This document shows, piece by piece, positions 2,388 to 59,365 of a stretch of DNA of 64,000 nt. Both the position numbers and the translations under genes were made by a program. The stretch is from Candidatus Saccharimonadota bacterium (GTDB lineage Bacteria > Patescibacteriota > Saccharimonadia > Saccharimonadales > Saccharimonadaceae), in contig WRMD01000003.1 in the NCBI GenBank assembly GCA_009777315.1, forward strand, positions 1-64,000. The letters are read 5' to 3'. Under the pieces are notes generated by a model, which had not been told where the DNA came from, did no database searches, and saw only the letters and a program-made list of their open reading frames with translations. Each line of letters begins with the position of its first letter. Within the stretch, counting starts at the first letter, position 1.

Positions 2388-2604
2388 CCCCACCCCCTAC
2401 GGGTAGACACAGCGGAGGGAGTGGCCATAGCGCTTTATCTCGTACGCAATATTAGGAGTCCAGCCAGCACGGATAAGTTCAGCATTTACGTCTGCAAAGG
2501 CGACCATTGCGCCAGATAGTAGTGAAGACCCCCACCACAGTGCTCGAGCTTGGTCATATAGCCCCTGCGGCGCACGATACAACCCCATCGAGACAGTGGC
2601 GAAG
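2388..2604 (-). repeat. Silent FISUMP C-terminal cassette A1
   Basis: An open frame runs from the start sequence CTTCGCCACTGTC (FATV) to LRCVYP-stop followed by the G-rich tail. The conserved core reads LWWGSSLLSG. There is no ribosome binding site and no signal sequence. It faces cassette A2 head to head across 457 bp, the longest centre of any pair here. Confidence 0.85.
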
Positions 2605-3061: not shown

Positions 3062-3267
3062 CCTTCGCCACTGTCTCAGGAGCATTCTTCTACCCGGCTA
3101 TTGGTGCATATTGGCAGTCTTCACATGGGCATTGGTGGACCTCTTCACTAGTAGGGGCAATAACTCCGTCCTATATATTCTTGAGCAATACAGCTATCCA
3201 ACCCAACACCAGCGACGATAGAAATCTTGGCTATTCCCTCCGCTGTGTCTACCCGTAGGGGGTGGGG
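3062..3267 (+). repeat. Silent FISUMP C-terminal cassette A2
   Basis: Runs from CCTTCGCCACTGTC (FATV) to LRCVYP-stop and the tail GGGGGTGGGG. The core reads HWWTSSLVGA and the end reads GYSLRCVYP. Its open frame has no credible start signal. The structured element at 3278-3414 begins 10 bases downstream. Confidence 0.87.
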
Positions 3268-8971: not shown

Positions 8972-9183
8972 CCCCACTCCCTACGGGTAGACACAGCGGA
9001 GGGAGTTACCAGCCCGTTTATGATTGCTATCTGTACCAGGATTATTACTTGCGTTATTTGTGTTTGTGCGCGCCGCATTTGAGGCCGAGGCCAACGACGA
9101 AGCATGCTGAAACAACGCTGATGACTGGCTGCCTAGGCCAGGATTTAATGGACTAAAGTTACCTATGGAGACAGTGGCGAAGG
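8972..9183 (-). repeat. Silent FISUMP C-terminal cassette B1
   Basis: Complete frame from FATV to LRCVYP-stop. The core reads LFQHASSLASASNA, so the usual WW pair is lost. Its end tail has one substitution (CCCCACTCCC instead of CCCCACCCCC). It faces B2 head to head across 45 bp containing TTGTATAAAACTT. Confidence 0.85.
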
Positions 9184-9228: not shown

Positions 9229-9431
9229 CCTTCGCCACTGTCTCGGCAGGTAGCTTTCAGTCAGGCGTTCGTAATCAAGCCAGCCTCATGCAATCGTGGA
9301 CTGGCTCACCTACATCATCTAGTAGTGCCAACCGTATAAATATATCCTCCGAGAATGCACAGCCATCTCAAGGTGCCAACAACAAAGCCTATGGTAACTC
9401 CCTTCGCTGTGTCTATCCGTAGGGGGTGGGG
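9229..9431 (+). repeat. Silent FISUMP C-terminal cassette B2
   Basis: Complete frame. The core reads SWTGSPTSSSSANR, again without the WW pair. Its end sequence differs at two positions (CTTCGCTGTGTCTATCCG). tRNA-Val(GAC) lies 64 bp downstream. Confidence 0.85.
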
Positions 9432-9632: not shown

Positions 9633-9844
9633 CCCCACCCCCTACGGGTAGACACAGCGGAGGGCATAACCAGCGTCTCTAGGTGGATTGCTACCGAATC
9701 CTGAACGAATTCTAGTAGCGTTCACATCTGAAAGATTAGTTCCAGCTCCCGAAAGGACAGACGATACCCACCAAGTTGCCGTTGTGGAATAACTAATGTT
9801 TGTGCTAATTACATGAATGACACCAGCCGTGACAGTGGCGAAGG
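9633..9844 (-). repeat. Silent FISUMP C-terminal cassette C1
   Basis: Complete frame. The core reads TWWVSSVLSGAG and the end reads GYALRCVYP. Faces C2 head to head; the 29-bp centre contains the palindromic stretch GACTTTTATAAAGTC. Confidence 0.87.
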
Positions 9845-9873: not shown

Positions 9874-10085
9874 CCTTCGCCACTGTCTCAGGTGGAGACT
9901 TTCTGTTTACTACCACTCTTGGGTTGCGATCTCAGTCTGAAGGCCCACACTGGTATTCATCGTCTATTGCTTCGGTAGCTAATGCTGCCAACATCTGGAT
10001 GTCAGGCATTGGCTCTTTTCCAGATGCGATTGCAAACAAGTACCGTGGTTACTCCCTCCGCTGTGTCTACCCGTAGGGGGTGGGG
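9874..10085 (+). repeat. Silent FISUMP C-terminal cassette C2
   Basis: Complete frame. The core reads HWYSSSIASVANAA and the end reads GYSLRCVYP followed by GGGGGTGGGG. Partner of C1. Confidence 0.87.
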
Positions 10086-16317: not shown

Positions 16318-16532
16318 CCCCACCCCCTACGGGTAGACACAGCGGAGGGAGAAGCCGTAGGACTTACCAACATTACTGTGCGCGCCCGGTGGATACAGAG
16401 TGTTGGGGGCTACGCTCATGTGAGGTGGATTTGTCGCTGAATCCATGGAGATGACCCACCATTGTGCAGCTGCAGACTGAGCATATAAGCCTCTATTCGG
16501 AACGAAGTACCCATTCGAGACAGTGGCGAAGG
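16318..16532 (-). repeat. Silent FISUMP C-terminal cassette D1
   Basis: Complete frame. The core reads QWWVISMDSATN and the end reads GFSLRCVYP. Its partner position on the right is occupied by a decayed copy (16671-16814). A strong promoter and hairpin lie between the two. Confidence 0.87.
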
Positions 16533-26430: not shown

Positions 26431-26642
26431 CCCCACCCCCTACGGGTAGACACAGCGGAGGGAGAGACCAAGATAGCTTGCTGTAGCGTCACGTGTACCG
26501 GGGTTTATGGTGTTGTGGAGCAGGCGTGTATATGAAGCAACCGTTCCAGAGGCGACAGAGGGAACGAACCAGTGAGCTCGTTCGTTTAGGTACTCTAGGC
26601 CATTACCAGGACGTAGCATCCCGTCCGTGACAGTGGCGAAGG
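26431..26642 (-). repeat. Silent FISUMP C-terminal cassette E1
   Basis: Complete frame. The core reads HWFVPSVASGTVAS and the end reads GLSLRCVYP. Faces E2 across a 28-bp centre with GACTTTATAAAGTC. The 26330-26430 stretch before it has a TTATCAACA motif and nothing else identifiable. Confidence 0.87.
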
Positions 26643-26670: not shown

Positions 26671-26882
26671 CCTTCGCCACTGTCACGTCGGCATGGCTTC
26701 AGCCCTTTTCTGGCGTCCGTGAGCAGTCCATGCAATCATATTGGTGGGATGCGTCACTAAGCACAGCCGACAACGCTTCCCTCACGAATGTGTTTAACGC
26801 GCAATCTGGACCGGGCCAACACGCCAACGGCCAAAGACATTTTGCCTTCTCCCTCCGCTGTGTCTACCCGTAGGGGGTGGGG
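26671..26882 (+). repeat. Silent FISUMP C-terminal cassette E2
   Basis: Complete frame. The core reads YWWDASLSTADNAS and the end reads FAFSLRCVYP. Partner of E1. The 206 bp from here to the AEC gene show no gene or clear structure. Confidence 0.87.
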
Positions 26883-29551: not shown

Positions 29552-29590
29552 AGCGAACGGGATTAAGACGACCGTTCGCTTTTGCTGTTT
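29552..29590 (+). terminator. Terminator after HD-GYP gene
   Basis: Stem AGCGAACGG/CCGTTCGCT with 11-nt loop, then TTTGCTGTTT. Located between convergent genes. Confidence 0.82.
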
Positions 29591-31046
29591 AGTTTTTGCA
29601 TTGGAGGAGCATGTGCTCGATGGGGGCGAAGCGGTCGGTGTAGACGCGGCCGATAGCGCGCTGGAGCGGCTGGATGCTGCTGGTCTCGTCGAAGGTGAGG
29701 GCGCGGCGAGAGAAGATAAGTTCGATGTTGGTGATGGTATGATCGCCTGGGAATTGTTGGACTATGTAGCGGTTGGGTAGATGGCGAGCGTAAATGCCGT
29801 AGACGGCATCAAAGAGGCGGCTGCAATTGCCGGCTTGAGCGCCGATGAGGTTGACGACGATGACGCCTTGGTCGTCGAGTAGGTGGTTGAGGCGATCGCC
29901 GAATTCGCGGGTGACGAACTGCCAGGGCATGGCGATGTCTTTGGAGACGTCAACCATGATGAAGTCGTATTGCTTGGTGTCGGCTTTACTCCGGACGAAG
30001 CTGCGGGCGTCTTCGCCGTAGATATTAATGTTATCGTGTTGGACAAAGCCGAAGTGTTTTTCGGCGATGGTCTGGAGCTTGGGGTCGATTTCGACGACAT
30101 CGATGGTGGAATCGGGGTATTGTCTGGCGAAGTAGTCAGGGAGATTGAAAGCGCCGCCACCCAAAATAAGGATGCGGGGGGGGGCTTCGATGTCGGACAT
30201 GCTGCTATGGAAGACTTCAGCGACCCGATGTTGATACCAAAAGACGAGCTCGCCGGAGCCGTCGGTGAAGACGGCGGACTGGATGCCGTGCGGGCCACTG
30301 AGAAGGGCGGTGATGTCGCGATCTTCCCAGGTGGTGGAGACGACTAAGTAGCGGGCGGTGGCGGTGTCGATGGTTATAGTATCGGAATCGCTGGAGCGCC
30401 AGACGAGGAAGCCGGCGACAACAACGAGGGCGATGGAGAAAACGAGGCGAACTTCCCAGAGGTCTTTAGTGACGAGCAGCCAGCTAATGCCGGCTGAGAG
30501 GGCGACGAGCAAGGCAAGCGTGACGTCGCCGCCGATGAGGCCAAAGAGGACAAAACCAGTAAGGAAAGTGCCGAGGATGCTACCGATGGCGTTCATGGCG
30601 GAGAGGTTGGCGACTGAACTGCCGGAAGTTTCGGTGGAGGTGATGGCCATTTTGGCGAGATAGGGGCTGACCATGCCGAGGATGAAGCTGGGTAGGGCGA
30701 AGAGGAGGAGGGCGGCGGTAAGGCCTTGCCAGCGGGCGTCTTTGAAGATAGCGACGGAAAGGTCAATGATGAGGCTTCCGGCCATAAGGACGAAGACGAT
30801 GCCGGCGCTTGCTGCGAGGAGGAGCCAGACGATGTCGAGAGGATTGTTGCGCTGGTCGGCGACGCGACCGCCATACCAGTAGCCTAACGCAAGGGCAGCC
30901 ATGATGACGCCGATGACGCTAGTCCAAACGAAGATGGAAGCGCCAATAGTGGGGGCGAGGAGGCGGGCGGCAACTAGCTCGAAAATCATTAGGACGAAGC
31001 CGGCGGTAAACGCGACGATTTTGTAGGCTAGCCCCTTATTCTTCAT
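29589..31046 (-). CDS. Membrane-fused spermidine-synthase-like methyltransferase-fold protein
   Basis: 485 residues. The N-terminal half has 6-7 transmembrane helices (VAFTAGFVLMIFELVAARLL; VWTSVIGVIMAALALGYWYG). The C-terminal half is a spermidine synthase/SAM-dependent fold with RILILGGGAFNLPDYFARQY, STIDVVEIDPKLQTIAEKHF and DDQGVIVVNLIGAQAGNCSR. This fused type is widespread, and aminopropyl transfer is not proven for it. TATACT lies 6 nt before the ATG, so the mRNA is leaderless. Confidence 0.88.
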   Translation of the reverse strand: MKNKGLAYKIVAFTAGFVLMIFELVAARLLAPTIGASIFVWTSVIGVIMAALALGYWYGGRVADQRNNPLDIVWLLLAASAGIVFVLMAGSLIIDLSVAIFKDARWQGLTAALLLFALPSFILGMVSPYLAKMAITSTETSGSSVANLSAMNAIGSILGTFLTGFVLFGLIGGDVTLALLVALSAGISWLLVTKDLWEVRLVFSIALVVVAGFLVWRSSDSDTITIDTATARYLVVSTTWEDRDITALLSGPHGIQSAVFTDGSGELVFWYQHRVAEVFHSSMSDIEAPPRILILGGGAFNLPDYFARQYPDSTIDVVEIDPKLQTIAEKHFGFVQHDNINIYGEDARSFVRSKADTKQYDFIMVDVSKDIAMPWQFVTREFGDRLNHLLDDQGVIVVNLIGAQAGNCSRLFDAVYGIYARHLPNRYIVQQFPGDHTITNIELIFSRRALTFDETSSIQPLQRAIGRVYTDRFAPIEHMLLQCKN

Positions 31047-32799: not shown

Positions 32800-33594
32800 G
32801 TGGACGATGAGAGTGACAGCGAGCTAAAAGTACTTCCCGAAGGTTTGTCGCGGGTGAAAACGCAACAGGATTTGTTGAAGTTTGAGGCGACGAACTTGGG
32901 GTTTATCGTGCTTCGGAGGAGCGGGGTTTACTGGACGGGGTATGAGCGGACGGCTTGGTTTTTGGATGAGCTGTATGGGATAAGAAATAAAGAGATAAAG
33001 ATGCGTTATGATGCGAACTTGAAGCGGAAAGTGCGGTCGGTGGTGTTTCATGTGGATAACTTTGGAAAGATTCGGGAGAAATTGCTGGAAAAGTGCGACG
33101 CGATAGTGCAGAAGGACACGTTTTTGGTGTTGCGTTTGCCGAAACCGGTGAAGGAAGAGGAAATTAAAGCGTGGGAGCGGCGCGGGGAGAAGGTGAGCGA
33201 TGTGGAGGCGGCGCTTTATCCGGATCGGCTGAGTAATCGGACGCTGGTGCGGCAGTTCGTGGCGTTGAACGCGGCGCTGATGCAGACGATTCGGGATGAT
33301 ATGCCGTCGGAGATGCGGACGGTGCTGGGGAGTGAGATGCTGAGAACGACACAGGCGGCGCTGGGGCATTATGTGGAGCTGGAGATTACTTGTAAGACGA
33401 TGGAGGCGTGCGCGGTGCAGGCTCGGTCGGTGGTGACGGAACTGCAAAAATTGGCGGTGCTGGCGATGACTGCGTTTAGTGCTGGGGCGATGGAAGAGGA
33501 GCGGGCGATGCGGATTGGACAGATGCAGCAAGAGGTGGTGCGGGGGCTGTACAATAAATACTTGAGGCTAGAGATTGTGGATGCGGAGAAATAA
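32800..33594 (+). CDS. Hypothetical cytoplasmic protein, 264 aa
   Basis: Not recognised. GTG start after a G-rich ribosome binding region (GGGGGAGGG). No transmembrane segment. The first half is mixed alpha/beta (LGFIVLRRSGVYWTGYERTA; KIREKLLEKCDAIVQKDTFL) and the second half is strongly helical (YPDRLSNRTLVRQFVALNAA; MLRTTQAALGHYVELEITCK), ending in EEERAMRIGQMQQEVVRGL. It follows the small membrane gene by 12 nt. Confidence 0.72.
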   Translation: MDDESDSELKVLPEGLSRVKTQQDLLKFEATNLGFIVLRRSGVYWTGYERTAWFLDELYGIRNKEIKMRYDANLKRKVRSVVFHVDNFGKIREKLLEKCDAIVQKDTFLVLRLPKPVKEEEIKAWERRGEKVSDVEAALYPDRLSNRTLVRQFVALNAALMQTIRDDMPSEMRTVLGSEMLRTTQAALGHYVELEITCKTMEACAVQARSVVTELQKLAVLAMTAFSAGAMEEERAMRIGQMQQEVVRGLYNKYLRLEIVDAEK

Positions 33595-35285: not shown

Positions 35286-35503
35286 CCCCACCCCCTACGG
35301 GTAGACACAGCGGAGGGAGAAGCCCTCCCTCCTAGATGAAGCATCTGTGCCAAAAAAGATTTGGGATGCACTGCTACCACGTAAGCTCGTAAAGGCCGAC
35401 TGAATCCCCGAGAGCACTGAAGAGGTGTACCAAAAGCTACGATCGTTTCGAGTATATTGCCCCTGGGATGGGAAGAAATAATCGCTCGAGACAGTGGCGA
35501 AGG
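35286..35503 (-). repeat. Silent FISUMP C-terminal cassette F1
   Basis: Complete frame. The core reads FWYTSSVLSGIQSA and the end reads GFSLRCVYP. Faces F2 across a 103-bp centre that holds a promoter and hairpin. Confidence 0.87.
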
Positions 35504-35606: not shown

Positions 35607-35818
35607 CCTTCGCCACTGTTTCGGGCGGGTGGTTTCATCCTCCGGGAGGGGCATCGAGTATGTCTATGTTGTTGGTGTTTCATGCTTCTTCTTTGAATGT
35701 GCCTCCTGCTCCGTCCTCCATATGGTTGCGTACAATTACGGAAGTTCTGCCTGGCACACATGAAGGCATAACATCAAGTAGCTATCTACTCCGCTGTGTC
35801 TACCCGTAGGGGGTGGGG
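35607..35818 (+). repeat. Silent FISUMP C-terminal cassette F2
   Basis: Complete frame, but the most diverged interior: the core reads LLVFHASSLNVPPA. The end is YLLRCVYP with the normal tail. Confidence 0.83.
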
Positions 35819-38659: not shown

Positions 38660-38871
38660 CCCCACCCCCTACGGGTAGACACAGCGGAGGGAGAGACCAT
38701 ACCGTTTAAAGTCGCTGCCGCCAGGGCCGCTAGACGTTAAGCTAGTAATTATGGAGCCTCCCGATATGTTTGATTGGAGAGAAGAGTTCCACTGATCGAT
38801 GCGTGTGGATTGGTAGGTTGAACCACTATCAGCCGCGGGACCGAAGCGACCCGACGAGACAGTGGCGAAGG
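38660..38871 (-). repeat. Silent FISUMP C-terminal cassette G1
   Basis: Complete frame. The core reads QWNSSLQSNISGG and the end reads GLSLRCVYP. Faces G2 across a 59-bp centre with two TTTATAAAG palindromes, homologous (inverted) to the sequence between the long surface gene and cassette I. Confidence 0.87.
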
Positions 38872-38930: not shown

Positions 38931-39142
38931 CCTTCGCCACTGTCGTTATGGGAATCTTTGATACAACTAGTGGCGGGCTAAGAGACCAGTCCCTGTTTGT
39001 ATGGTGGAGCAGTTCGTCCGTAGTATCCGCCATACATGCTGGTGGGGTGAATATGATGTCAACATCTGCCATAAACATCAGCTCGACACAGCAGAAACAA
39101 CATGGTTTTACCTTCCGCTGTGTCTACCCGTAGGGGGTGGGG
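38931..39142 (+). repeat. Silent FISUMP C-terminal cassette G2
   Basis: Complete frame. The core reads VWWSSSSVVSAIHA and the end reads GFTFRCVYP (one variant residue, F for L). Partner of G1. Confidence 0.87.
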
Positions 39143-42565: not shown

Positions 42566-42781
42566 CCTTCGCCACTGTCGGATCGGCTATCTTGCATAAT
42601 CAAGGCCTCACAGGGCTTCATGTAATGTCAGAGCGATCAATATGGTGGACGTCATCTAATGTATCAACTATATGGCCCGGCTATTCGTGGATCAGTCCTA
42701 CATTGACAGACCTGGCACGTTCCGATCATGGCAAATTCAGTGGTCTAGCCCTCCGCTGTGTCTACCCGTAGGGGGTGGGGA
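42566..42781 (+). repeat. Silent FISUMP C-terminal cassette H (unpaired)
   Basis: Complete frame. The core reads IWWTSSNVSTIWPG and the end reads GLALRCVYP with the full tail. There is no facing partner; the position of the partner is taken by the structured element. Confidence 0.87.
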
Positions 42782-47886: not shown

Positions 47887-48049
47887 GGTTCAATGTTTCT
47901 CCTATGATAATACATATTATTATACACGTTTTAGGGAAAGAGTCAACTTGGTTTGGAACTTTCCCCCTCCCCCTTGCTTTAACCCTCATGCTAATGTTAA
48001 ACTTAAAGCATTAATGATTAACACAAGGTCTAAACGAGGTGCTCTAAAT

Positions 48050-49944
48050 ATGAAACAGCTTAACTCTAATAATACCTCCCCCCACCCAACTGGGGGGGGG
48101 GTCCTTCTAAGCTTGGTTTAGCTAGATACTCTACTAATAACAAACACTCCACCAAACTCCCATCATACAAACATACTACCAACTCCCCCAAAGGAACAAT
48201 CCACCAGTATAACAAGAAGTATAAGCATAATACCTCCATACCTACACTCTCCTCCAACCTCCTCACCAAATCCCTCCAGCCTACTAAGATACTAACTGGC
48301 CTAGTAATACTATCAGTCTTTACCACCCTAGCGGCTGGCATCGCCAGCCGCTTAGTCCCCTCATACGCGAGCCCTGCAGAACTCGGAGTAGCTTTTGGTG
48401 CCACGGTCGACTTCAGCCTAACTATGACCGTAGGGGACGCCTTTAGTACCTACAACTGCCCAGCCTCCGGCGGAGCCGGAGGCAGCCTGAACCTAGGCAG
48501 TGTCGCACCTAACGGCAATCTCTACTATGCCTGCGTTAACGTCAACGTCACTACCGACAGCACCCTAGGCTATACACTCTCGATGCAGGGAGACAGCACT
48601 GGACTATACAATAGTGCAGCTAGTGCTACGATAGCTAGAATGCCAGGCTCTATAGCATCTCCTTCTAGTACAGTCCTAGCCCAGAACAACACCTGGGGCT
48701 TCTGTATACCTGGTGATACGATGCAGGGTATAGCTAATGGCTTTAACACAGGCCCTACAGCCTGTGGTGGTACTAATGGTAACACAGCTAGTGCGATAGG
48801 CTTTGCCGGAGTACCTGTAGGTAAGACCCTAATCAAGTCCGTAGAGACCCTACCTACTACCGACACCCAGCAGAACACTCCAGTTAGGTTTGGGGTTCGT
48901 CCTACTGGAGCTACTGCAGCTGGTACCTACTCCTCCACCATTACCTTTACTGCTAGCATCAATGAAGCCCCTATAGTCTTTATGCAGACCTTCACTACTG
49001 CAGAGTGTAACATGCTTGCAGTAGGAGACATCATCACCCTACCTGATGCTAGAGACAATACACAGTACCGTATCAAAAAGATGCCCGACAACAAGTGCTG
49101 GATGATGGATAATCTGGCTTATACTGGTGGTGGGGATAATACCTATGGGGATGTGGTGCCGGCCTTCAGTGGCAGCACTCCCACTACATCCAGTACTGGT
49201 GTCCTGATTGAACACCCAGGCGGTGGTGACTGGCCAGTAGGTGGCAGTAACGCTAACCGACAAACTGTTCGTCAGTTCGCTAACAACAGCAGTGCCGGCT
49301 TTAATAACACGTCCTGTCTACCAGATACTCCAACCGGCACTGGTGTTATGCAATCTATCTGTGGCGACCAGGTGCTCTACAACTTCTGCGCAGCTATGGG
49401 GCTAGACGATTCTACCACTCCTACTTGTAGTGCAGTTTCTAACACAACCACCGGTACCAACATGGCATCTACCGGTGTGGTCGGTGCAACAGGAAGCGGC
49501 ATAGGTGGCGAGAGCCTTGGTTCCGGCGGCACTTCCATTTGCCCTGCTGGCTGGAGGATACCTGTAGGACGGGTCGGCGCCAGCAATGACAGCAACAATG
49601 AATGGGCTATACTCAGTGGAGCATTCAATACTGGCGGGACAAACTTAGCCCCTAATACTTCAACTGATGCTGGCTTCATGGGTTACTGGCAGCCGGCTGG
49701 TACATCAGTAGGTTCGGGTGGTATCCAGCTTGGTGGCGGGGCCTTTGGTACAGTATCAGCCGGCAGCGTCACTAGTGCGGCGGGCGATCTCAACGGTCAG
49801 TCCTCGTACGCGTACTGGTGGACATCCTCCTTAAGCTCTGCTACCAACGCTTGGGACACGGCCGTGAACAGCACGAACGTCAACCCCGGCACGAACGGCA
49901 ACAATAAGGCCGCCGGATTCACTGTCCGATGTGTTTATCCTTAG
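48050..49944 (+). CDS. FISUMP-domain surface protein, switched off by a 10-G frameshift
   Basis: Not a single frame in this sequence. ATG 48050 (GAGGTG 8 nt upstream) begins MKQLNSNNTSPHPTGGG and hits TAG at 48119. The adjacent frame is open without a stop from 48073 to 49944 but has no ATG, GTG or TTG before 48424. One extra G (or two fewer) in the run at 48092-48101 joins them into a 630-631 aa protein. Its parts: basic N-terminus of about 80 residues, hydrophobic signal helix (TKILTGLVILSVFTTLAAGI) with a likely cleavage site in YASPA, a beta-rich module like the proteins at 57-59 kb, and a C-terminal FISUMP domain (DARDNTQYRIKKMPDNKCWM; CPAGWRIPVGRV; YWWTSSLSSATNAW; GFTVRCVYP). The last 65 residues correspond to the silent cassettes. 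Codons are C-rich, unlike neighbours. A predictor using ATG 48424 would lose the signal sequence. Confidence 0.85.
48092..48101 (+). repeat. Poly-G run (10 G), candidate phase-variation switch
   Basis: Ten consecutive G follow ACCTCCCCCCACCCAACT, 42 bases after the only plausible start codon of the surface gene. Length changes would move the gene in or out of frame. Confidence 0.8.
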
Positions 49945-50060: not shown

Positions 50061-50269
50061 CCTTCGCCACTGTCACATCGGATGCGTTCAATGCTTCCTT
50101 TGGTCTATGGGGTCAATCTTTAGTTTCTACCTGGTACACTTCTTCGCTCTTGTCGGCAACACGAACAACGTTCGCACATTTAGCACCTACATTCATGAGA
50201 GCCGGAACTCATGATGATGTCAGAGCTTTTGGCGAATCCCTCCGCTGTGTCTACCCGTAGGGGGTGGGG
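50061..50269 (+). repeat. Silent FISUMP C-terminal cassette I
   Basis: Complete frame in the same orientation as, and directly behind, the long surface gene. The core reads TWYTSSLLSATRTT and the end reads GESLRCVYP. Close placement after the full-length gene makes it an obvious donor candidate. Confidence 0.87.
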
Positions 50270-50290: not shown

Positions 50291-50344
50291 ATGAACGAGG
50301 AGTCTCAACTGGTAATGGTAAGGGGGCGTAGTGAGCCAGTCTGA
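50291..50344 (+). CDS. 17-residue leader ORF coupled to fic
   Basis: TATAAT ends 6 nt before ATG 50291, so the message is probably leaderless. The ORF encodes MNEESQLVMVRGRSEPV and its stop lies 14 nt inside the fic reading frame. Ribosomes ending here could restart at the fic GTG (AAGGGGG 4 nt upstream). A translational-coupling leader is the simplest reading. Confidence 0.5.
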   Translation: MNEESQLVMVRGRSEPV

Positions 50345-51395
50345 CAACTTCGGAGAATACAAAAAACTTGGTGAGCCGGATAAACTAAGGAAGGTTGAGA
50401 ACTGGCGGGTCGGTATTGGTCTGCAACAAATTGACGGGCTGACGCCATCTAAGCAACTGATTGAGCTTGCGAAAGACAACATTGAGGGCAAGATTTCGAT
50501 TGATGAAGCAACAGAACGAATCGCCCAGTATTACAAGAAGAACCCGGCTCAAACTCCAATAGAGAGAGGCGAGCAGGAAGCCGATGAAGTTTCTTCTCGC
50601 ATCACTAGGCTGCTGAGTAGCAATACTTTCGCTCTTAGTCCGGCCGAACTGGTGTCAATTCACAAATACCTGTTCAATGGTGTGCTGAGCGACGAAATCG
50701 CCGGCAAAATTCGCGACTACGACATTAGCAAGGACGAGCCCATATTGAACGGCTATACTGTGAGTTACGGTCGAGCAGATAGTATCCAAGAAACGCTGGA
50801 TTATGACTTCAGTCGGGAGAAAGAGTTTAGTTTTAAGGGTTTGACGCAGCAGGAGAAAGTCGAACATATCATGATGTTTATGTCTGGCGTTTGGCAGATT
50901 CATCCGTTTGCTGAAGGGAATACTCGTACTATAGCCGTGTTTGTTATTAAGTACCTTCGAACGTTGGGGTTCAAGGCGAATAACGAGTTGTTTGATGAAA
51001 ACTCTGTTTACTTCCGCAATGCTCTTGTCCGGGCGAACTACAATAATCTTGAAAAGGGTGTATATGAGAATACGGAGTATTTACGTATGTTCTTCGGTAA
51101 CTTGTTGCTAGGCGAGAAGAATAGGTTGCGTAACGGAGACATGCAAATTGACTCAGAAACTACCCAGAAAACTACCCAGAAAACTACCCAGAAAGTCTTG
51201 GATGTTTTAGTGAATAATCCATCAGCTACTCGCAAAGAAATGGCGGAGATTATAGGACTAACTGAAGATGGGGTGAAGTGGAATCTTAACAAGCTACGTG
51301 AAGAAGGTAAGATTAGGCGCATCGGCCCGGATAATGGCGGGCACTGGGAAGTTGTGGAAGCGGGCGGCGCTTTTCTCCCCACCCCCTACGGGTAG
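50331..51395 (+). CDS. Fic family protein with C-terminal winged helix
   Basis: 354 residues. The N-terminal helical part is followed by the Fic core: LSPAELVSIHKYLFNGVLSD and the catalytic motif HPFAEGNTRTIAVFVIKYLR (HPFxxGN-x-R). A triplicated TTQK (TTQKTTQKTTQK) precedes a winged helix (LDVLVNNPSATRKEMAEIIG, TEDGVKWNLNKLREEGKIRR). Fic enzymes AMPylate or otherwise modify target hydroxyls. The last residues (FLPTPYG) and the stop codon are contributed by the end repeat of cassette J. GTG start coupled to the small leader ORF. Confidence 0.9.
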   Translation: MSQSDNFGEYKKLGEPDKLRKVENWRVGIGLQQIDGLTPSKQLIELAKDNIEGKISIDEATERIAQYYKKNPAQTPIERGEQEADEVSSRITRLLSSNTFALSPAELVSIHKYLFNGVLSDEIAGKIRDYDISKDEPILNGYTVSYGRADSIQETLDYDFSREKEFSFKGLTQQEKVEHIMMFMSGVWQIHPFAEGNTRTIAVFVIKYLRTLGFKANNELFDENSVYFRNALVRANYNNLEKGVYENTEYLRMFFGNLLLGEKNRLRNGDMQIDSETTQKTTQKTTQKVLDVLVNNPSATRKEMAEIIGLTEDGVKWNLNKLREEGKIRRIGPDNGGHWEVVEAGGAFLPTPYG

Positions 51396-51582
51396 ACACA
51401 GCGGAGGGAAAAGCCTGCAGGTTTGCCGACGTTGGCTGCGCTATGGGCTATGAAGGTTTCGGTTAAATATAGATAGGGTGCTGTGGCGGTCGATAGCAGA
51501 GATGAGTTCCACCAATGTGCTTCGTTGCTGGGTTGAGACAGAGTGCTGGTAGTAAACCAGCCGGTCGAGACAGTGGCGAAGG
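51377..51582 (-). repeat. Silent FISUMP C-terminal cassette J
   Basis: Complete frame. The core reads HWWNSSLLSTATAP and the end reads GFSLRCVYP. Its end repeat overlaps the final 19 bases of the fic gene. Cassettes I and J point toward each other (tail to tail), the opposite of the usual pairs, with fic between them. Confidence 0.87.
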
Positions 51583-57073: not shown

Positions 57074-57664
57074 TTAGTTGGCGGTTACGAGTAGAGTAAT
57101 GCTGTTGCTATAAACACCGGTGGGTACGAACCCAGCCCATACGCCGATCTGGATAGGGAAGTCGAAGTTGCCAGATCCGGTTTCATTAGCTATGAGGTCA
57201 GGAGTCGTGGCGGCTGGGACTTGAGCGAAGGTGCCGGCGGCGAAGCTGTTGATGTTGTAGCCCCAAGAGTTCTGGGTCAGGATGGATGGGTTGGTTAGCG
57301 TGCCGGTGGAGGCAGGGATACGAGCAACGCTACTAGTTAGAGATTCGTGGATGAGAGCGCCGTCACTGGTGTCGGTGTCGATCATCGAGATAGTCATAGA
57401 CCATCCGGCTGGGTCGTTACTATTGACGTTGACGTTGACGGTGCTGGTAACTACGGTATTGAACTCAGCTGCTAGCATGGTAACCTCGATCTCGGTTGGT
57501 AGCTGGACAGTGAACTCGTCTCCGATTTCAACTGAGAGGCCGGTTGCCCCTGCTTCTGACGCGTATCCGGCTTGCGGCAACGCGATTCCGATGCTGAGGA
57601 GGAAAGCCGCGACCCATGTGATACCTACGATTTTCCACTGTTTGTTTGATTTTGTTTTAAGCAT
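57074..57664 (-). CDS. Secreted beta-rich surface protein
   Basis: 196 residues from ATG 57664 (AAGGG 5 nt upstream). Signal sequence IVGITWVAAFLLSIGIALPQ with cleavage near GYASEA. The rest is beta-rich: VTMLAAEFNTVVTSTVNVNV, LTQNSWGYNINSF and VWAGFVPTGVYSNSITLLVT. The order (VNVNV, ARIP, NSWGY, GxYSNSI) matches the front module of the 48-kb surface protein and the protein at 58625, so the three form one family, perhaps pilin-like or S-layer-like subunits. No cysteine. Confidence 0.78.
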   Translation of the reverse strand: MLKTKSNKQWKIVGITWVAAFLLSIGIALPQAGYASEAGATGLSVEIGDEFTVQLPTEIEVTMLAAEFNTVVTSTVNVNVNSNDPAGWSMTISMIDTDTSDGALIHESLTSSVARIPASTGTLTNPSILTQNSWGYNINSFAAGTFAQVPAATTPDLIANETGSGNFDFPIQIGVWAGFVPTGVYSNSITLLVTAN

Positions 57665-57714
57665 ATTCACCCTTTTTGCTTTATTTTTATTTGTTTGTTA
57701 ATGTTTATGACTTT

Positions 57715-58599
57715 TTAGCGCTTGCGGTCGAGTATGATCTTGCCGATGAGTAGTGCCAAGAGTAGACCAACTATGACGATGAGGTAGAGTGGGATGATAA
57801 AGACAACGGAGGATTCGCTAGTGGTTTTGCCGAGAAGGGTTATTTCTTGCGTGACTCGGAAGATACCGATGCCCGGCGCGCCTTCCCAGCGGATTTCGAC
57901 GTCACGTGGTCGCTCGGAGAGGACGACGTGGCTGGTTTCAATGCGGGCTCGTTCGCGGCCACCGAAGAAGTTTTCTATGGTCATGGTGCCGCTGGCCCAC
58001 TCATCGGTGTTGCCGGTGTTCTCGAGCTTGACGTGGGAGCGGATGGGGGCTCGGAAGAGTAGGGAAGGGATGCGGATACGGGTTACGCTGGCGCTACTAC
58101 GAAGGTCGCCGGTAACTGTCGCGAAGACGCGATGAGCGGCTTGACGATGAACGTCGATGGTGGCGCCTTCATCTCGCATGGTGGCCAGGATGACTGCTCG
58201 TTGCGCACCGCCCGGGGCGTTGGTTGGGACGTTGATGTTGTATTTGACTTGGACATATTCGTCGGGCTGTAAGGTCCATTCCGTCCCGTTATCAAAGGTG
58301 ATCCAGTTGGCTAGTAGCGTCTGACTGCTCTTAGCCGCATCACCGAAGATGTCGGAATAGTCGGGAACGTTGACGTCTACAGCCTCAGCTCGGACGTCGA
58401 AAGTTAGGGTTTGGTTGCCGTTGTTCTTGATGGTAAACTCGCCAGCGGTTTGCATGCCAGGGTCGAGAGTAAATCGTGATTCAATCGGAGACATAAGCAG
58501 TCTTCGCCCACTTTCATTGTTGGCATACGCCACGCCCGCGCTTGCGGCAACTAATGTTACGGCCGTCAAGCATCCGAGAATCTTTGTTAGGGTTTTCAT
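57715..58599 (-). CDS. DUF916-like surface protein with C-terminal anchor
   Basis: 294 residues. A signal sequence (LGCLTAVTLVAASAGVAYAN) is followed by Ig-like beta domains (FTIKNNGNQTLTFDVRAEAV; DEYVQVKYNINVPTNAPGGA; LENTGNTDEWASGTMTIENF) and a C-terminal transmembrane helix with a basic end (IVIVGLLLALLIGKIILDRK). This layout matches DUF916/DUF3324-type proteins, which in Gram-positives partner WxL surface proteins. Lying between two secreted subunit genes on the same strand, it probably anchors or assembles them (inference). Confidence 0.8.
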   Translation of the reverse strand: MKTLTKILGCLTAVTLVAASAGVAYANNESGRRLLMSPIESRFTLDPGMQTAGEFTIKNNGNQTLTFDVRAEAVDVNVPDYSDIFGDAAKSSQTLLANWITFDNGTEWTLQPDEYVQVKYNINVPTNAPGGAQRAVILATMRDEGATIDVHRQAAHRVFATVTGDLRSSASVTRIRIPSLLFRAPIRSHVKLENTGNTDEWASGTMTIENFFGGRERARIETSHVVLSERPRDVEIRWEGAPGIGIFRVTQEITLLGKTTSESSVVFIIPLYLIVIVGLLLALLIGKIILDRKR

Positions 58600-58624
58600 G
58601 TTTATATCTCCTCAGAATCTCTAT

Positions 58625-59182
58625 TTATAGGTTATGCGCGATCGTGAAGACGACAGTGTTTGCGTATGTACCAGACTGGAGGGTCGAGTCAACATTGACA
58701 CCAAAGGTAAGGGTTTCAGTTGCCTCACCAGCAGCACCAGTTACGAAGACACCTACAGGCGTGCTTAGACCAGGAACCGGCATGTAGTTGCCAGTGGTTC
58801 GGTAGCCCCAGGTGTTAGCTGAAAGGCTGGCGCCGCCAGCAGTTGCCGGAATCGTGTTGACAGAGCTAACAGTGTTTACCAGGGCGTTGTTGTCGGTTGC
58901 AGTTGACATAGAAACGGTGAAACCGTTAGCAGCTGTCGTGCTACCAGTGATGGTGAGCGGCTGTGTCAACGTGCTGCCGATAGTAGTACCATCGAACACG
59001 AAGTTCAAGGCGGCCGGGCTGATCTCAGCGAACGTGGTTGGATCCGTGGGGTCGACAATCTCGATCGCCTCGGGGACCTCTACAGTTACCGGGATGTCTG
59101 CATACGCTGCAAGCGGCATAGCCGCGACACCCAGGCCCGCTACCACGCTAAGGGCAGCAATAGCCTTTGATATTTTTGTCAT
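58625..59182 (-). CDS. Secreted beta-rich surface protein, paralogue of 57074 gene
   Basis: 185 residues from ATG 59182 (AAGGAG 7 nt upstream). Signal sequence AIAALSVVAGLGVAAMPLAA with cleavage after AYA. The mature part has QPLTITGSTTAANGFTVSMS, SANTWGYRTTGNYMPVPGL and STLQSGTYANTVVFTIAHNL, the same TWGY and GTYANT elements as its paralogues. First gene of a three-gene surface cluster (58625, 57715, 57074). Confidence 0.78.
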   Translation of the reverse strand: MTKISKAIAALSVVAGLGVAAMPLAAYADIPVTVEVPEAIEIVDPTDPTTFAEISPAALNFVFDGTTIGSTLTQPLTITGSTTAANGFTVSMSTATDNNALVNTVSSVNTIPATAGGASLSANTWGYRTTGNYMPVPGLSTPVGVFVTGAAGEATETLTFGVNVDSTLQSGTYANTVVFTIAHNL

Positions 59183-59365
59183 AGTATCTCTCCTTATGAC
59201 TTTATTTTGTATTTGCTTTTGTAATCTTTGTTTCCACACAATTGAATTACATTCATATGGTAGCCCGGGATCGTGCTTATGTCAACTATTTATTTGGCTG
59301 GCTGTGGATAACTCTGGCTTTGACCCCAGTATTTTGGGCTTGGTTCGGAATTGCTTTAGGCGGAT

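What the first reader, a model, noticed from the sequence alone, without database searches (positions are those of the whole stretch)
48050..48430. Poly-G on/off switch in the full-length surface gene
ATG 48050 with a Shine-Dalgarno opens a frame that stops at 48119. The neighbouring frame is open from 48073 through the surface protein but contains no start codon before 48424, although it encodes a signal helix and cleavage site between 48319 and 48390. The two frames meet exactly at a run of 10 G. Eleven or eight G would fuse them into a 630-631 aa secreted protein. This is the classic layout of slipped-strand phase variation, and the sequenced state is off.
Basis: seen in the sequence. Interest (0 to 1): 0.92.

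Follow-up and report, generated by a model that had tools for sequence, protein, structure and literature searches.

The report
Poly-G on/off switches on Saccharibacteria adhesins
An ultra-small parasitic-type bacterium (Saccharibacteria) carries a run of ten Gs that puts a variable surface-protein gene out of frame; three sister genes and genes of related bacteria have the same switch in both on and off settings, so this is very probably a real genetic coin-flip and not a sequencing slip.

Summary
ATG 48050 (with a Shine-Dalgarno) runs through ten G (48092-48101) into a stop at 48119. The surface frame (48073-49944) has no ATG/GTG/TTG before 48424, which lies after the signal helix. It is not an isolated accident. 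In this 834-kb Saccharibacteria genome, four surface paralogues have a 9-10 G tract between start codon and signal helix, all in the OFF phase, and the only long dinucleotide array, (TC)25, lies upstream of a fifth. Other genera of the family have the same design: two G003 paralogues share a leader with 10 G (ON) and 11 G (OFF). Over 13 such genes 4 are ON, about the one third expected of random phase. A second class of G tracts sits in promoter spacers (32 of 88 runs; 1.7 expected). MutS is absent. Gene bodies are under purifying selection. The window gene is also the target of a diversity-generating retroelement. Best explanation: slipped-strand translational phase variation of a hypermutated surface protein. 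The mechanism is classic; its presence in this phylum and its pairing with a retroelement appear unreported in the papers I could search. Length variation within one population could not be tested.

The parts
47957..48124 (+). Leader module: putative promoter region, Shine-Dalgarno, start codon and poly-G tract, shared with paralogues on contigs C17 (94.7%), C10 (81%) and the end of C1 (100% over 110 bp)
   Evidence: blastn within the genome
48036..48041 (+). Shine-Dalgarno GAGGTG
   Evidence: sequence
48050..48121 (+). Short upstream frame from ATG 48050, MKQLNSNNTSPHPTGGGVLLSLV*, stop TAG 48119-48121 (OFF product)
48092..48101 (+). Poly-G tract, 10 G (switch; sequenced phase OFF, ON phases would be 8 or 11)
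48108..48110 (+). TAA closing the third (second OFF) frame
   Evidence: sequence
48102..49944 (+). Surface-protein frame downstream of the tract; no ATG/GTG/TTG before 48424
48125..48250 (+). Segment present in this paralogue and absent from its C17 sister; both flanks are 95-99% identical to C17
48289..48372 (+). Signal helix (KILTGLVILSVFTTLAAGIASRL) and cleavage-like site (PSYA|SP)
   Evidence: translation; same helix in paralogues
49090..49935 (+). FISUMP / Fib_succ_major domain (PF09603 E 4e-9; TIGR02145 E 3.9e-12, both above the curated cut-off)
49742..49939 (+). Variable repeat of a diversity-generating retroelement whose template repeat is at G000:C6:32472-32678(-) next to a reverse transcriptase (C6:31346-32465)
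   Evidence: 21/57 template A changed vs 13/142 other bases, p=1.2e-5

Best explanation
This is a translational phase-variation (contingency) switch. The start codon and Shine-Dalgarno are followed 42 nt later by a G homopolymer. Slipped-strand mispairing during replication adds or removes G. Only tract lengths of one residue class mod 3 (8, 11 ...) join the start to the signal peptide and the FISUMP surface protein; the other two classes end within 10 codons. Without that join no secreted protein is made, because the only later start codons lie after the signal helix. The organism lacks MutS, so slippage at such tracts should be frequent. The protein's C-terminal lectin-like tip is separately rewritten by a retroelement, so each cell would decide both whether to display each family member and which binding surface it shows. 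Shown: the sequence layout, recurrence, both phases in relatives, purifying selection, the template/variable repeat pair, absence of MutS. Inferred: actual slippage rate, surface display, and a role in attachment to host bacteria or phage escape.
For: Exact layout. Same tract at the same place in four paralogues: window 10 G, C17 10 G, C10 9 G, C7 10 G, each with its ATG out of frame with the surface frame and both OFF frames closed early. The other five paralogues start at an ordinary ATG without a tract, so the tract is specific and not a family-wide codon run. Same design in G003 (10 G ON, 11 G OFF with near-identical leaders; 10 ON; 13 ON; 13 OFF), G009 (10 ON), G021 (11 OFF), G109 (10 OFF), G012 (15 OFF): 4 ON of 13 in all. 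Gene bodies dN/dS 0.27 or less although OFF. A transcriptional counterpart is common in the order: G runs inside sigma-70-like promoter spacers, 32 of 88 against 1.7 for shuffled flanks and 2 on the opposite strand. MutS is missing in 150 of 151 family genomes (PMC8406219 reports no MutS/MutL in Saccharibacteria); a mutS mutation raises poly-G switching in Neisseria (PMC3639595).
Against: No reads or second genome of the species were available, so no length polymorphism was seen in one population. All four tracts of this genome are OFF (chance 0.2 if phases are random). The leader is homogenised between paralogues (leader dS 0.024, body dS about 1.7), so the four cases are not independent. Residual expression by ribosomal or transcriptional slippage cannot be excluded.
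Confidence: 0.87

Rival explanations
1. Assembly or sequencing error: the true tract is 11 (or 8) G and the gene is permanently on.
For: Homopolymers of 10 are error-prone. The genome is a 30-contig draft. G-rich junk sits at the ends of contigs C12 and C16.
Against: The same tract class recurs in four loci at different distances from their in-frame length, so one systematic off-by-one would not put them all in frame. Independent assemblies of other genera show both phases. Even if the count were wrong here, a 9-11 G tract in that position would still be a switch.
Confidence: 0.05
2. Recoding: the G run is a fixed site for ribosomal frameshifting or RNA-polymerase slippage, so the OFF DNA still yields some full-length protein.
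For: A G run is slippery. A strong local hairpin CCCCCCACCC/GGGGGGGGGG is predicted. The same hairpin potential is present in C17 and C10.
Against: Recoding needs a fixed phase relation, but tract length and phase differ between near-identical leaders and some copies are in frame without any shift. The fold is not better than shuffles (z -1.06). The C-rich arm is not conserved in other genera.
Confidence: 0.05
3. A decaying pseudogene frozen by a frameshift.
For: Sequenced frame is broken; a leader fused directly to a variable repeat with the gene body missing exists at C6:30036-30446.
Against: Some 490-670 codons stay open in every tract-bearing gene of this genome, dN/dS is 0.27 or less, and the variable repeat still carries retroelement-type changes.
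Confidence: 0.02
4. A tuning element, not an on/off switch: the tract or its hairpin modulates translation rate, and a start inside or after the tract is used.
For: C7 and C10 have in-frame GTG codons within the signal helix; G012 has an ATG just after its tract.
Against: In the window gene and in C17 no ATG/GTG/TTG occurs until 105-107 codons past the tract, after the helix.
Confidence: 0.03

Closest known systems
Translational poly-G phase variation, e.g. lgtG of Neisseria meningitidis (PMC3639595) and the 16 translational candidates of Helicobacter canadensis (PMC2823697)
   Same: [quoted passage not shown] frame lost or restored by one-base slips; surface-related products; poly-G tracts of 10 or more in H. 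canadensis; rate raised by loss of mutS in Neisseria.
   Different: Different phylum (Saccharibacteria, no MutS found); the leader module is shared and homogenised between paralogues; the gene is at the same time a retroelement target. Population length variation was read directly in those species and not here.
porA of Neisseria meningitidis: poly-G between -35 and -10 (PMC3639595)
   Same: The second class of tracts found here (C5:39711, C10:17501, C18:12447 and many in relatives) lies between TTGACA-like and TATAAT-like boxes.
   Different: Not the window gene's mechanism; in Saccharibacteria the tract mostly abuts the -10 box and serves pilin-like, signal-peptide and other genes.
Diversity-generating retroelement variable proteins (Bordetella phage Mtd type; review PMC10053308); DGR-diversified tip pilins of Bacteroides (PMC12632263)
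   Same: Reverse transcriptase next to a template repeat; variable repeat at the C-terminus differing mostly at template adenines.
   Different: Here the target carries a simple-sequence on/off switch at its 5' end.
Hypervariable 9-mer repeat gene of a Gracilibacterium (PMC6851277)
   Same: Repeat-based variability in another Patescibacteria lineage, slippage invoked.
   Different: In-frame 9-mer repeats altering protein length, not a homopolymer on/off switch.

Membership tests
Simple-sequence-repeat translational contingency locus | Homopolymer longer than background at the 5' end of a reading frame | tested here: met
   10 G, 42 nt after ATG; runs of 9 or more exceed the extrapolated decay about 12-fold
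Simple-sequence-repeat translational contingency locus | One phase gives the full protein, the others terminate early | tested here: met
Simple-sequence-repeat translational contingency locus | Start codon and ribosome-binding site upstream of the tract, none usable downstream | tested here: met
   GAGGTG + ATG 48050; no ATG/GTG/TTG until codon 107 after the tract
Simple-sequence-repeat translational contingency locus | Different tract lengths and both phases among related copies | tested here: met
   9-15 G; 4 ON of 13; near-identical leaders at 10 (ON) and 11 (OFF)
Simple-sequence-repeat translational contingency locus | Tract length varies within one population | not testable with these tools
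   no reads, one genome per species
Simple-sequence-repeat translational contingency locus | Expression switches with tract length | not testable with these tools
   needs reporter or proteomics
Diversity-generating retroelement target | Reverse transcriptase beside a template repeat | tested here: met
   RVT_1 at C6:31346-32465 (E 2.7e-12), template at C6:32472-32678
Diversity-generating retroelement target | Variable repeat differs from the template mainly at adenines | tested here: met
   window: 21/57 A vs 13/142 non-A, p=1.2e-5; in the C6:4538 gene nearly all differences within the shared stretch are at template A
Diversity-generating retroelement target | Accessory protein (Avd, HRDC or MSL) | tested here: inconclusive
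   ORF C6:30604-31372 beside the retroelement and the similar window 32800-33594 match no Pfam family
Programmed ribosomal frameshift site | Fixed slippery site with fixed phase and a supporting structure | tested here: not met
   phase and length vary between copies; fold z -1.06
FISUMP / Fib_succ_major domain protein | Match above the curated cut-off | tested here: met
   PF09603 37.4 bits (cut-off 33.9), TIGR02145 47.2 bits (41.65)

The most novel reading that the evidence does not exclude
Saccharibacteria run a general poly-G 'phasome': start-codon-proximal switches and promoter-spacer switches on pilins, adhesin-like and other secreted proteins, in an organism without mismatch repair; in this lineage the switched genes are also rewritten at their tips by a diversity-generating retroelement, giving two stacked layers of randomised surface display in an episymbiont-type bacterium.
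Probability: 0.65. Interest if true: 0.85.

Novelty: new variant of a known kind. Interest (0 to 1): 0.74.

Why it matters
How ultra-small episymbionts with few regulators find and keep hosts, or evade phages, is open. A heritable coin-flip on surface proteins, visible directly in DNA, gives a testable answer: tract lengths can be counted in existing metagenome reads of any Saccharibacteria. It also means that standard gene callers miss or truncate these genes when the assembly caught an OFF phase (here the signal peptide was lost). Cultured Saccharibacteria could be scanned at once for the same tracts.

Tried and rejected
(1) Leader DNA in 60 relatives: no match; the design is conserved, the sequence is not. 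(2) The only genome-collection scan for relatives gave one hit, the 3' half of a homologue in a contig filed under a Defluviitaleaceae MAG (L178); of no use for the tract. (3) Orthologues of a G009 switch gene and of a G149 promoter-tract gene in congeners, to see length change in orthologues: none usable found. (4) RNA structure as the regulator: hairpin present but not better than shuffles. (6) Order-3 Markov expectation overestimates long runs and was not used as the main null. (7) Structure prediction not run: without the paralogues in the alignment it would have been poor.

Full report
WHAT IS THERE. ATG 48050, preceded by GAGGTG, is followed 42 nt later by exactly ten G (48092-48101) and stops at TAG 48119. 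The adjacent frame is open for 623 codons, 48073-49944. It carries a hydrophobic helix and cleavage-like site (about 48289-48372) and a FISUMP/Fib_succ_major domain above the curated cut-offs. No ATG, GTG, TTG, CTG or ATT occurs in it between the tract and ATG 48424. A TAA at 48108 closes the third frame.

THE ORGANISM. The window lies in an 834-kb, 30-contig draft genome, 87% complete. Contig C18 begins in a bacterial 16S rRNA (Rfam SSU) that contains the exact target of the Saccharibacteria-specific primer TM7-1177R (primer sequence in PMC6073563). It is therefore most likely a Saccharibacterium (TM7, Patescibacteria).

IS IT MORE THAN CHANCE. I took the whole genome as stretches. Internal G/C runs number 33 of length 7, 4 of length 8, then 5 of 9, 5 of 10 and 1 of 12; A/T runs never exceed 8. 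Extrapolating the decay from length 5 to 8 predicts under one run of 9 or more; there are 11. Four of the 11 lie in the leaders of FISUMP-type surface genes: window C3 (10 G), C17:5077 (10 G), C10:9554 (9 G), C7:13555 (10 G). In each, the ATG upstream of the tract is out of frame with the surface protein. The phase that would join them is 8/11 for C3, C17 and C10 and 9/12 for C7. Five other paralogues have an ordinary ATG and no tract. One of these, C6:4538, has the genome's only long dinucleotide array, (TC)25, about 350 nt upstream of its start.

RELATIVES. G runs of 10 or more occur in 37 of 151 genomes of the family and 21 of 198 sampled across the order; most genomes have none. Reading those loci gives the same arrangement of start codon, G tract and signal helix in five further genera. 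In G003 two paralogues have near-identical leaders: 10 G reads straight through (MKGNNSINQTPLGGGSHSKNKK..., 494 codons after the tract), 11 G stops a few codons after the tract. G003 also has 10 G ON, 13 G ON and 13 G OFF; G009 10 G ON; G021 11 G OFF; G109 10 G OFF; G012 15 G OFF (with an ATG just after the tract, so possibly not fully OFF). With the four OFF tracts of the window's genome, 4 of 13 are ON, close to the one third that unconstrained slippage predicts.

A second class appears in the same survey. Of 88 distinct internal runs of 9 or more, 32 sit between a TTGACA-like box (at most 1 mismatch) and a TATAAT-like box (at most 2) spaced 15-21; the opposite strand gives 2 and shuffled flanks 1.7 (maximum 6 of 300). 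With perfect TTGACA the numbers are 17, 1 and 0.1. In the window's genome these are C5:39711 (12 G, before a GreA-like gene), C10:17501 and C18:12447; these three pass a looser test of two mismatches per box, and at that setting the flanks-shuffled expectation over all 88 runs is 13 against 39 observed. In relatives many of the downstream genes encode pilin-like or signal-peptide proteins. This matches the porA type of poly-G promoter (PMC3639595). So poly-G tracts laid out like contingency loci of both classic types exist in Saccharibacteria.

SELECTION AND HISTORY. Between paralogues the gene bodies have dN/dS of 0.27 or less with dS at or near saturation, so these are not dead genes. The leader and signal region of C3 and C17 is 95-99% identical (dS 0.024), while the bodies are far diverged (dS about 1.7). 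Contig C1 ends inside a further copy, 100% identical over 110 bp. The switch-bearing leader is thus a module that spreads or is homogenised between paralogues, and the four switches are not independent inventions.

MISMATCH REPAIR. MutS (PF00488) was not found in this genome or in 149 others of the 151 searched in the family, while it is found in 11 of 14 control genomes. PMC8406219 reports no MutS or MutL in Saccharibacteria. Long homopolymers should therefore be unstable here, which fits their general rarity and suggests that those kept are kept for a reason (inference).

SECOND LAYER. The C-terminal 200 nt of the window gene is the variable repeat of a diversity-generating retroelement. The template repeat at C6:32472-32678 adjoins a reverse transcriptase (RVT_1 E 2.7e-12). 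The window copy differs at 21 of 57 template A against 13 of 142 other bases (p = 1.2e-5), and the C6:4538 copy almost only at A within the shared stretch. The same gene is thus switched at its start and rewritten at its tip. In the papers searchable here I found no report of simple-sequence phase variation in Saccharibacteria and no retroelement target with a simple-sequence switch; that is a limited library and not proof of absence.

HOW IT MOST LIKELY WORKS. Shown: layout, recurrence, both phases, purifying selection, absence of MutS, template/variable repeat pair. Inferred: replication slippage changes the G count; about one third of tract lengths connect the start to the signal peptide; cells differ in which family members they display. 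The likely use is to vary attachment to bacterial hosts or to hide from phages. Not shown: length variation within a population, expression, and surface location.

RIVALS. A miscounted tract cannot explain four loci plus both phases elsewhere. Recoding at a fixed slippery site is contradicted by the varying phase. Decay is contradicted by the intact, selected gene bodies. Tuning through internal starts is possible for C7, C10 and G012, not for the window gene.

Noticed in passing
window 2400-2604(-), 3062-3255(+), 8984-9183(-), 9229-9419(+), 9645-9844(-), 9874-10073(+), 16330-16532(-), 26443-26642(-), 26671-26870(+), 35298-35503(-), 35607-35806(+), 38672-38871(-), 38931-39130(+), 42566-42768(+), 50061-50257(+), 51389-51582(-): About 140 orphan ~200-nt cassettes genome-wide look like copies of the surface gene's C-terminal variable repeat: conserved 5' CCTTCGCCACTGTC and 3' CCCTCCGCTGTGTCTACCCG (LRCVYP-stop), hypervariable in between, often in divergent pairs. 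I know of no such dispersed array of variable-repeat cassettes; it deserves its own study.
   Followed up: partly
L106 (G000:C6:27000-38000) and L148 (G000:C8): Two retroelement-type reverse transcriptases: C6:31346-32465 with template repeat C6:32472-32678, and C8:16183-17130 near two orphan cassettes but with no recognised template.
   Followed up: partly
window 32800-33594(+) and G000:C6:30604-31372(+): Two similar ORFs, one beside the C6 retroelement; the placement suggests a retroelement accessory protein, but no Pfam match.
   Followed up: partly
L051 (G000:C6:4138-4187): (TC)25 array about 350 nt upstream of the start of surface paralogue C6:4538, the only long dinucleotide array in the genome; possibly another expression switch.
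   Followed up: partly
L077 (G000:C6:30036-30446): Copy of the promoter/leader fused directly to a variable repeat with the gene body missing, next to the retroelement.
   Followed up: partly
L060, L061, L068 (C5:39711, C10:17501, C18:12447): G tracts in promoter spacers in the window's genome, one before a GreA-like gene; the same class is widespread in the order.
   Followed up: yes
window 30176-30184: A run of 9 G (C on the coding strand) inside the spermidine-synthase-like ORF 29589-31046(-); in frame as sequenced.
   Followed up: no
window 50331-51395(+): Fic-domain protein with a VbhA-like N-terminal stretch, HTH domain and a 12-nt tandem repeat (51157-51194, TQK repeats).
   Followed up: no
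window 57074-59239(-): Cluster of three secreted-type proteins, the middle one weakly WxL-interacting-protein-like below cut-off.
   Followed up: no
L064, L065, L067 (ends of contigs C12 and C16): Very G-rich sequence at contig ends (runs up to 23 G), probably sequencing or assembly artefact.
   Followed up: no
L178: A 63%-identical FISUMP homologue on a contig filed under a Defluviitaleaceae MAG (WRLD01000030.1); probably a mis-binned Saccharibacteria contig.
   Followed up: no
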